Virus record (IMG/VR): IMGVR_UViG_3300020171_000050
Span: 1 to 46,442 of that record
Strand: one strand, 5' to 3'
Origin: a virus
Length of the DNA: 46,442 bases
Positions 14,834 through 28,602 of the stretch are shown piece after piece. Position numbers and translations under genes: made by a program. A model generated the notes under the pieces. It searched no databases. It saw nothing but the letters and a program-made list of their open reading frames with translations, and was not told where the DNA came from. Each line of letters starts with the position of its first letter. The first letter of the stretch is position 1.

Positions 14834-14921
14834 ATCAATACCTCCCCGTAAGGCCCCCGATAGATATAAAGGGCAGGGCGGTCGGGTACCGCCTCTTCGG
14901 TCGCGAACCTAGCCCCGTGTC

Positions 14922-27530: not shown

Positions 27531-27774
27531 AGAATATCCCTGGATTTTAGACTACGGCATTTCGCCCGACACTCGACTCCCGGTGATCCCTGGGGACACG
27601 TCAGATTGGGTCGAGGGCGCCTTAATACCGTCCACACCCGTCCCTAACCAGGATGAGGTCCATGGGCAGACAACAGGCCGGCCAGGGGTTTCGGGCCACC
27701 GGAAGGTGAAGGCCGACAAATTCAGGAAAGGAGGTAATTTTGGATCAGGAAATAATGATTATAACGTTGTCTGA
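27523..27774 (+). CDS. Early protein of unknown function
   Basis: 83 residues from a GTG that overlaps the end of the membrane-protein gene, with GGAGGGG upstream. The sequence is Pro/Gly-rich and apparently little structured, ending in a polar tail. The end of the frame contains the ribosome site and start of the next gene in another frame. Unknown function. Confidence 0.4.
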   Translation: MIEEYPWILDYGISPDTRLPVIPGDTSDWVEGALIPSTPVPNQDEVHGQTTGRPGVSGHRKVKADKFRKGGNFGSGNNDYNVV

Positions 27775-27916
27775 TGCATTACGTGACATTGTGGCCACCG
27801 CATCCTCTGTACGCATTAACGGACTGGAAGATGGCGAAACTATCGAGGCCGTATTAACCGAAATAGAGCAAACCAGCGCCAGGGCATTAACACATTGTGG
27901 TATTGAGGTAATCTGA
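27740..27916 (+). CDS. 58-residue early protein, TTG start
   Basis: A GAGGT site lies five bases before the TTG. The protein (TLSDALRDIVATASSVRING, then ETIEAVLTEIEQTSARALTH) is mostly helical and acidic. An internal ATG (codon 6) is a possible alternative start. It ends 10 bases before the structured RNA block. No family recognised. Confidence 0.5.
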   Translation: MDQEIMIITLSDALRDIVATASSVRINGLEDGETIEAVLTEIEQTSARALTHCGIEVI

Positions 27917-27925
27917 ATGAAATCG

Positions 27926-27998
27926 TGCTGGCAGTAGCTCAGTATCGGTAGAGCCCGGGGCTTCACGGCGACGTGGGTTCGATGCCCACCTGTCAGCA
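27926..27998 (+). ncRNA. tRNA-like structure with a reduced anticodon arm
   Basis: CTGGCAG (27928-27934) pairs with CTGTCAG (27990-27996, one G-U) as a 7-bp acceptor stem, extendable to 9 bp. TA, a GCTC/GAGC D-stem with an AG...GGTA loop (27937-27954), and a GTGGG/CCCAC T-stem with TTCGATG loop (27973-27989) are canonical. Only 18 bases lie between D and T arms, against about 22-23 in a tRNA, and at most a 3-bp CCG/CGG anticodon stem forms. No CCA is encoded. It looks like a tRNA elbow without a decoding arm, so probably not a working tRNA. Confidence 0.6.
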
Positions 27999-28007
27999 AC
28001 CCGAATC

Positions 28008-28091
28008 GTGCTGGTGGCCCGAAAGGGTGGGCATGGGGTGTCGGGACGTAAGATCGAGGACCTGCGGAGGTAGGGGCCGACCCACCAGCAC
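28008..28091 (+). ncRNA. Structured RNA domain A downstream of tRNA-like element
   Basis: GTGCTGGTGG (28008-28017) pairs perfectly with CCACCAGCAC (28082-28091). Inside are CCC-GAAA-GGG (28018-28027), a GTCGG/CCGAC helix (28040-28044 with 28077-28081) stacked directly on the outer stem, and within it ACCT-GCGG-AGGT (28060-28071). No coding frame is supported here. The multi-branched fold and GNRA loop suggest a functional RNA; no known class recognised. Confidence 0.55.
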
Positions 28092-28093
28092 AC

Positions 28094-28172
28094 GCGGGGA
28101 GTGGTGTTAGAGAGACCGGCATAAGGGGACAGTAAATCCCCCGCCTGTGAAAGTCGGTTCACCACTTCCCGC
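28094..28172 (+). ncRNA. Structured RNA domain B with possible pseudoknot
   Basis: A 13-bp stem (28094-28106 with 28160-28172, one G-U) encloses a 7-bp helix (GACCGGC 28114-28120 with GTCGGTT 28153-28159). Inside, GGGGA/TCCCC (28125-28129 with 28137-28141) closes a 7-base loop whose ACAG side can pair with CTGT at 28145-28148, an H-type pseudoknot. It begins two bases after domain A and ends about 95 bases before the next gene. No T tract, so not a terminator. Confidence 0.55.
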
Positions 28173-28266
28173 ACCCTTAACCCTGGCAACCTTGAAACCA
28201 TCAACCCAATTTTAACCGCGTGGCAGGGTCTCCAGGGGTGGTCTCCCTGCCGCGCCGAGGGGAGAC

Positions 28267-28602
28267 ATGAGGCGTGAATACTTTGTAATATCCGAGGTCG
28301 TACCCGTTGACCCTACGAACCTATCAGACGGGTTCAAATTTCCCTCTGATGACAACTGGGTTGACTCCACCTATGTGATTGACGGGGATCGGCTGAGGTA
28401 TGGAATACCGCGAGGCGACAGGTTTTTCAATGGGGGTTGGTGGAATGGTAGTCAAACGTACTATGCAAATAGCTCTGTCCGCCTCATCCTAGACCCACCG
28501 AAGCTCGAGGGGGACGAGTGGCAAAAGGATCTTAAAGAGGTAGTCCACATGATTACAGATGTGCTGCATAGCCTACTCCAAAGGATGCCGAGGAAGCCAT
28601 GA
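28267..28602 (+). CDS. Early protein of unknown function
   Basis: 111 residues with GGGGAG upstream of the ATG. The first half is beta-rich with many aromatic residues (DRLRYGIPRGDRFFNGGWWN), and the C-terminal 35 residues are helical (KDLKEVVHMITDVLHSLLQRM). It is the first gene after the structured RNA block and overlaps the next gene by four bases. No family recognised. Confidence 0.5.
   Translation: MRREYFVISEVVPVDPTNLSDGFKFPSDDNWVDSTYVIDGDRLRYGIPRGDRFFNGGWWNGSQTYYANSSVRLILDPPKLEGDEWQKDLKEVVHMITDVLHSLLQRMPRKP

What the first reader, a model, noticed from the sequence alone, without database searches (positions are those of the whole stretch)
28008..28172. Two adjacent multi-helix RNA domains, one with a pseudoknot, downstream of the tRNA-like element
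Perfect 10-bp and near-perfect 13-bp outer stems lie two bases apart, each enclosing further helices. About 250 bases of non-coding DNA in a packed early operon are devoted to three consecutive folds. Large phage RNAs such as GOLLD and ROOL also associate with tRNA-like parts, but I do not recognise this one as a known class.
Basis: seen in the sequence. Interest (0 to 1): 0.8.

Follow-up and report, generated by a model that had tools for sequence, protein, structure and literature searches.

The report
tRNA-linked folded RNA modules in phage
A virus of bacteria carries, between two early genes, a defective tRNA copy followed by two folded RNA pieces unlike any catalogued RNA; in a sister virus one piece keeps its closing stem while its inside has been completely replaced, a swap also seen in a widespread, uncatalogued phage RNA found on the way.

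Summary
The stems exist as described: a perfect 10-bp stem (28008-28017/28082-28091) and a 13-bp stem (28094-28106/28160-28172, one G-U), two bases apart. Two such adjacent domains appeared in 0 of 3000 shuffles of this gap. Domain 2 is convincing as RNA (z -4.9). Domain 1 is marginal (z -1.9), and its proposed inner helices and the pseudoknot are not supported. Rfam 15 has no match apart from the tRNA-like element, which has lost a normal anticodon arm. Homologues are almost absent. The closest sibling phage lacks the tRNA-like element and domain 1. It keeps the 13-nt 5' arm of domain 2 letter for letter and re-closes a stem around an interior with no similarity (z 0.4), beside a leader about 85-93% identical. 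The same 'stem kept, inside replaced' pattern occurs in related phages (L012-L014, next to another degenerate tRNA) and in a widespread phage RNA absent from Rfam (228 INPHARED records, 730 of 5426 E. coli genomes), whose kissing-hairpin scaffold covaries strongly (11 pairs changed on both sides, 0/500 shuffles). I read D1/D2 as cotranscribed RNA modules with exchangeable interiors, punctuated by a tRNA-like element. Function is inferred; D1/D2 show no covariation.

The parts
27921..27931 (+). AATCGTGCTGG, 11-nt direct repeat (copy 1) at the 5' edge of the tRNA-like element
   Evidence: an 11-mer repeat occurs in 61/3000 shuffles of the gap
27927..27998 (+). tRNA-like element: good acceptor, D and T arms, anticodon arm shortened (18 nt between D and T arms instead of about 22-23), no encoded CCA
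   Evidence: ARAGORN 'tRNA-Pro(cgg)'; Rfam tRNA 33.2 bits; motif scan
28004..28014 (+). AATCGTGCTGG, direct repeat (copy 2) at the 5' edge of D1
28008..28091 (+). Domain 1 (D1): perfect 10-bp closing stem around about 64 nt with several possible helices
   Evidence: (z -1.9); no Rfam match; weak partial match in L009 15878-15975
28094..28172 (+). Domain 2 (D2): 13-bp closing stem around 53 nt
   Evidence: (z -4.9); 5' arm conserved 13/13 and 3' arm 10/13 in G017, interior replaced
28184..28266 (+). Conserved leader of the 28267 ORF: 11-bp hairpin GCGTGGCAGGG/CCCTGCCGCGC then GAGGGGAGAC-ATG; TCTCC segments could pair with the GGGGAGA ribosome-binding site
   Evidence: 93% identical to G017 over 85 nt while the upstream RNA is not; leader alignment z 17.9; fold
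27740..27916 (+). Upstream small ORF (58 aa, no family hit)
28267..28602 (+). Downstream ORF (111 aa, no family hit)
   Evidence: no relative found in a viral-contig scan

Best explanation
The 350-nt gap encodes an array of RNA modules on the + strand, read through as part of the early operon: a degenerate tRNA, D1 and D2. Shown: D2 is a stem-closed RNA domain whose 5' closing arm is kept exactly in a sibling phage while its interior has been replaced wholesale; the tRNA-like element and D1 are absent there, so they come and go separately from D2. Inferred: the tRNA-like element keeps the parts that RNase P and the tRNA 3' nucleases recognise but has lost its decoding arm, so it serves as a processing mark that frees D1-D2 from the mRNA. 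The rigid closing stem then stabilises and presents a variable interior, which is the working part and changes quickly because its partner (a host RNA-binding or RNA-cleaving factor, or a target RNA) changes.
For: Two adjacent stem-closed domains in 0/3000 shuffles; D2 z -4.9. The G-U pair of the closing stem favours + strand RNA. Sibling G017 has the D2 5' arm 13/13, the 3' arm 10/13 and an added inner extension of the stem, with its own fold z -4.1, interior alignment z 0.4 and leader z 17.9. Related phages L012/L013/L014: near-identical flanks, closing stem kept, interior replaced (L012/L013 interior z 0.0), and a degenerate tRNA present in L012 and absent in L013/L014. The kissing-hairpin RNA next to that tRNA shows strong covariation, unrelated inserts inside near-identical scaffolds, and tRNA genes in 6 of 15 sampled loci. 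No intrinsic terminator in the region.
Against: No compensatory change in D1 or D2 themselves; only one homologue of D2, none convincing for D1. D1 folds barely better than shuffles. L013 shows the RNA modules persist without a tRNA-like element, so tRNA punctuation is not required there. No transcript data. A kept stem with a free interior would also fit a stem-only function such as mRNA protection.
Confidence: 0.38

Rival explanations
1. Cis-acting mRNA element: the closing stems act as intercistronic barriers or processing sites (exonuclease stop, RNase III site) that set stability of the flanking cistrons; the interior is free to vary because only the stem matters.
For: Modules lie between genes in the direction of transcription and end close to ribosome-binding sites; stem kept while interior varies.
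Against: Interiors are 30-160 nt and change by replacement between near-identical flanks, whereas a bare stem would tolerate deletion; the related kissing RNA keeps an exact loop-loop core that a barrier would not need.
Confidence: 0.27
2. Cis-acting antitermination or anti-pausing RNA like HK022 put: two structured RNAs in the early transcript bind RNA polymerase and let it read on.
For: put is also two adjacent stem-loops in about 70 nt of an early phage transcript, putR about 270 nt from its start (PMC9378689); here two domains lie 2 nt apart early in the operon.
Against: putL and putR share sequence similarity; D1 and D2 share none evident with each other, and the D2 interior is wholly different in the sibling. 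No intrinsic terminator was found near the block. In the wider set, modules lie before holin genes and inside tRNA clusters too.
Confidence: 0.12
3. Remnant of a decaying phage tRNA cluster: the tRNA-like element and D1 are broken tRNA genes, D2 is a chance or relic hairpin, and nothing here is functional.
For: Degenerate tRNA with lost anticodon arm; an 11-nt repeat shared by the starts of the tRNA-like element and D1; D1 weakly folded.
Against: D2 is far above chance and its arm is kept 13/13 in a sibling where the rest of the block differs; similar arrays recur in related phages.
Confidence: 0.15
4. DNA-level element: closing stems work as cruciform or recombination sites that exchange interiors, with no RNA role.
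For: Interiors are swapped between kept arms; tRNA-like elements flanked by short direct repeats.
Against: G-U pairs on one strand only, strand-asymmetric folding (L013 z -4.0 on + against -1.1 on -), consistent orientation with genes, and covariation of the related family.
Confidence: 0.08

Closest known systems
GOLLD and ROOL RNAs
   Same: Structured phage/prophage RNAs of unknown function, often near tRNA islands; GOLLD has a conserved 3' part, a less conserved 5' part, and sometimes tRNAs inside (PMC12286853)
   Different: Far longer (GOLLD often over 800 nt); no Rfam match here even at E<=10
HK022 put RNAs
   Same: Two adjacent RNA stem-loops in an early phage transcript (PMC9378689)
   Different: put is about 70 nt in total and similar between copies; D1+D2 are 165 nt, each a closed domain, with an interior that is not conserved
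T4 stable RNAs C and D (species 1 and 2), from own knowledge
   Same: Stable non-tRNA RNAs encoded within a phage tRNA cluster and cotranscribed with tRNAs
   Different: Not compared by sequence here; no paper in the library was found
Proteo-phage-1 (RF03044) and int-alpA (RF02996)
   Same: Small phage intergenic RNAs of similar size; Proteo-phage-1 lies in tandem with the kissing RNA in Pseudomonas phage PS-1
   Different: D1 and D2 do not match either model
Kissing-hairpin phage RNA found here (not in Rfam 15)
   Same: Long variable closing stem, swapped interior, tRNA neighbours, intercistronic position; occupies the slot after the degenerate tRNA in related phage L012
   Different: Near-invariant GCGC-AGGCTGAT-GCGC and CCGG-AGATCAGCA-CCGG hairpins are absent from the window

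Membership tests
GOLLD / ROOL | Match to the family covariance model | tested here: not met
   cmscan of 27700-28400 at E<=10 lists no GOLLD or ROOL
GOLLD / ROOL | Encoded in phage near tRNA genes | tested here: met
   virus record, tRNA-like element 10 nt upstream
tRNA | Acceptor, D and T arms | tested here: met
   Rfam tRNA 33.2 bits, gathering 29
tRNA | 5-bp anticodon stem with 7-nt loop | tested here: not met
   18 nt between D and T arms; that part of the model is left unaligned; L012's tRNA likewise gets no amino acid from ARAGORN
HK022 put | Two adjacent stem-loops in an early transcript | tested here: inconclusive
   Two adjacent domains present; no + strand promoter matched the strict scan
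HK022 put | Sequence similarity between put elements | tested here: inconclusive
   D2 interior not conserved in the sibling; put sequences were not aligned directly
HK022 put | Binds RNA polymerase and suppresses termination | not testable with these tools
   needs transcription assays
Kissing-hairpin phage RNA (this work) | GCGC-loop-GCGC and CCGG-loop-CCGG hairpins with complementary loops | tested here: not met
   pattern scans of the window find no such pair
Any Rfam 15 family | Match of D1 or D2 | tested here: not met
   the best is a 15-nt match of a TCV hairpin far below its gathering score
   one D2 homologue without compensatory changes, no convincing D1 homologue

The most novel reading that the evidence does not exclude
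Many tailed phages carry a kind of RNA in which a closing stem or stem-plus-kissing-hairpin scaffold is kept and the enclosed payload is exchanged like a cassette, often beside tRNA or tRNA-like genes. D2 of this window and the kissing-hairpin RNA would be two separate scaffolds of this kind, their payloads diversified against host RNA biology or defence.
Probability: 0.3. Interest if true: 0.85.

Novelty: new variant of a known kind. Interest (0 to 1): 0.6.

Why it matters
If right, phage genomes hold a class of small RNA that homology tools miss because only the scaffold is kept while the working interior is swapped between near-identical phages. The kissing-hairpin RNA found on the way makes this testable at once in laboratory lambdoid phages, since it is strongly supported by covariation, matches 228 phage records and 730 complete E. 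coli genomes, and carries no RNA annotation where checked.

Tried and rejected
Blastn of the block against phages and plasmids, also at E<=10: nothing real. Exact patterns from D2 loops (0 hits) and from a D1 loop (7 chance hits with unrelated flanks). Closest exonuclease relatives (L002-L008): RNA absent. Single-sequence covariance models of D1 and D2 over 543 kb of relatives: only the window itself, plus a weak L009 hit for D1 (E 0.2) whose 3' arm seems to lie at the end of a CDS on the other strand, so not accepted. D2 as a member of the kissing family: rejected, motifs absent. Ribozyme and tmRNA readings: considered by eye, no Rfam support. Host identification: nearest named phages by terminase or exonuclease are under 30% identical, so the host stays unknown. 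The last viral scan with the conserved leader found only G017. Literature: no paper in the library on the kissing motif (the single hit is an unrelated paper).

Full report
Setting. The window is a virus record of 46,442 bases with terminase, head-tail adaptor, endolysin, Prim-Pol primase, exonuclease and NinB genes. The finding lies in a 350-nt gap (27917-28266) between a 58-aa and a 111-aa ORF on the + strand, about 2.4 kb before the exonuclease gene.

Observation. Both closing stems are present at the stated coordinates. D2 folds much better than shuffles (z -4.9, 0/200), D1 hardly (z -1.9, 10/200). In context the D2 stem forms with p about 0.99 and the D1 stem about 0.6; the inner helices named for D1 are not favoured and the D2 inner helix has p about 0.5. 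Shuffling the gap gives two adjacent stem-closed domains in 0/3000 cases. D2 is the only intergenic stem-closed element of the window that passed score >=11 and z < -3. The pseudoknot is a 3-4 bp possibility without evidence.

The tRNA-like element. ARAGORN and Rfam recognise it, but the stretch between D and T arms is 18 nt and carries no normal anticodon arm. Its start and the start of D1 share AATCGTGCTGG. The 3' side of its T arm is also complementary to a D1 segment (27982-27990 with 28026-28034), an alternative pairing that appears in the centroid of the whole block.

Homologues. Blast, patterns and single-sequence covariance models found almost nothing. The exception is G017 (IMGVR_UViG_3300033064_002906), a sibling with over 5 kb at 91% identity in the late region. 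At the same place it has another small CDS, no tRNA-like element, no D1, then the D2 5' arm GCGGGGAGTGGTG letter for letter, a different interior, and a closing 3' arm (GTGGTGAGCA/TGCTCACCAC plus GCGG/CCGC), followed by the conserved leader of the next gene. The interiors show no similarity (z 0.4) whereas the leader does (z 17.9); the G017 module itself folds at z -4.1. This is conservation of pairing with replacement of content, not covariation: no compensatory change was seen in D2.

Same pattern in relatives. Three phages related through the exonuclease (L012, L013, L014) carry, directly after that gene, a row of RNA modules. A 79-91 nt stem-closed module keeps its closing stem but has unrelated interiors in L012 and L013 (z 0.0), and in L014 its slot holds a different 88-nt module with a 16-bp stem (fold z -4.7). 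A degenerate tRNA is present in L012 and cleanly absent from L013 and L014.

A widespread scaffold found on the way. The module after that tRNA led to an uncatalogued RNA: closing stem, hairpin GCGC-AGGCTGAT-GCGC, insert of 31-162 nt, hairpin CCGG-AGATCAGCA-CCGG, with the two loops complementary (GCTGAT/ATCAGC). On 16 sequences 96% of pair cells hold, 11 pairs change on both sides, 0/500 shuffles reach any measure, and sliding the register destroys it. Most of that signal is in the closing stem (7 of 8 pairs); in the loop-loop helix two pairs change on both sides, in one lineage. Inserts inside near-identical scaffolds are unrelated in most comparisons. Blast finds matches in 228 INPHARED records at E<=5 (the weakest rows, for example in Gordonia, may be chance) and in 730 of 5426 complete E. 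coli genomes. It is not in Rfam 15 at E<=1, and has tRNA genes close by in 6 of 15 sampled loci, among them Pseudomonas phage D3. The window itself has no copy, so D1/D2 are not members; the pattern is shared, not the sequence.

Interpretation. Shown: D2 is an RNA-type domain with a kept closing stem and an exchanged interior; the tRNA-like element and D1 are missing from the sibling; comparable arrays exist in related phages. Inferred: cotranscription, cutting at the tRNA-like element, accumulation as small RNAs, and a fast-evolving interior that does the work. The main rival is a cis-acting mRNA barrier in which only the stem matters; a put-like antiterminator is less likely because nothing inside is conserved.

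Verdict. D2 real, D1 plausible, pseudoknot unproven, function unknown by experiment. New variant of a known kind (tRNA-associated structured phage RNA). The most interesting extension, scaffolds with swapped payloads as a general phage RNA type, I put at 0.3.

Noticed in passing
L012:11046-11170, L035:580-712, L036 (- strand), L039-L042, L061-L071: Widespread phage RNA absent from Rfam 15: covarying closing stem, two kissing hairpins (GCGC-AGGCTGAT-GCGC / CCGG-AGATCAGCA-CCGG), and an insert of 31-162 nt that is exchanged between phages with near-identical flanks; matches in 228 INPHARED records and 730 of 5426 complete E. coli genomes.
   Followed up: yes
window 14854-14919 (-): int-alpA RNA (RF02996) above gathering score.
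   Followed up: no
window 28184-28266: Leader with an 11-bp hairpin before the 28267 ORF, 93% conserved in a sibling although everything upstream differs; its TCTCC segments could pair with the ribosome-binding site, suggesting translational control.
   Followed up: partly
window 27982-27990 and 28026-28034: 9-nt perfect complementarity between the 3' side of the tRNA-like T arm and D1; pairing would exclude the T arm (possible switch, or chance).
   Followed up: no
L012:10961-11044 against L013 and L014: Degenerate tRNA present in one phage and cleanly absent from two siblings, bounded by TTTA in the filled site, as if inserted or deleted as a unit.
   Followed up: partly
L017:8997-9070 (-): tRNA-Arg(TCT)-like gene that seems to lie inside an open reading frame of a putative phage protein, read through without a stop.
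   Followed up: no
L008:334-477 (-): tRNA-Leu-like ends (GCGAGAG...CTCTCGC) with a long insertion that contains a second T-arm-like hairpin.
   Followed up: no
L042:567-646 and 801-905: Proteo-phage-1 RNA (RF03044) and the kissing RNA in tandem between two early genes of Pseudomonas phage PS-1.
   Followed up: no
L009:15877-15897 (and L010:13705-13725): 21-nt exact match to the D1 5' arm and first hairpin (window 28007-28027) in a region between genes on the other strand; whether it is homology stays open.
   Followed up: partly
L023:12796-12904: Strong strand-asymmetric stem-closed element (z -4.6) about 2 kb after the exonuclease gene, ending in a T-run.
   Followed up: no
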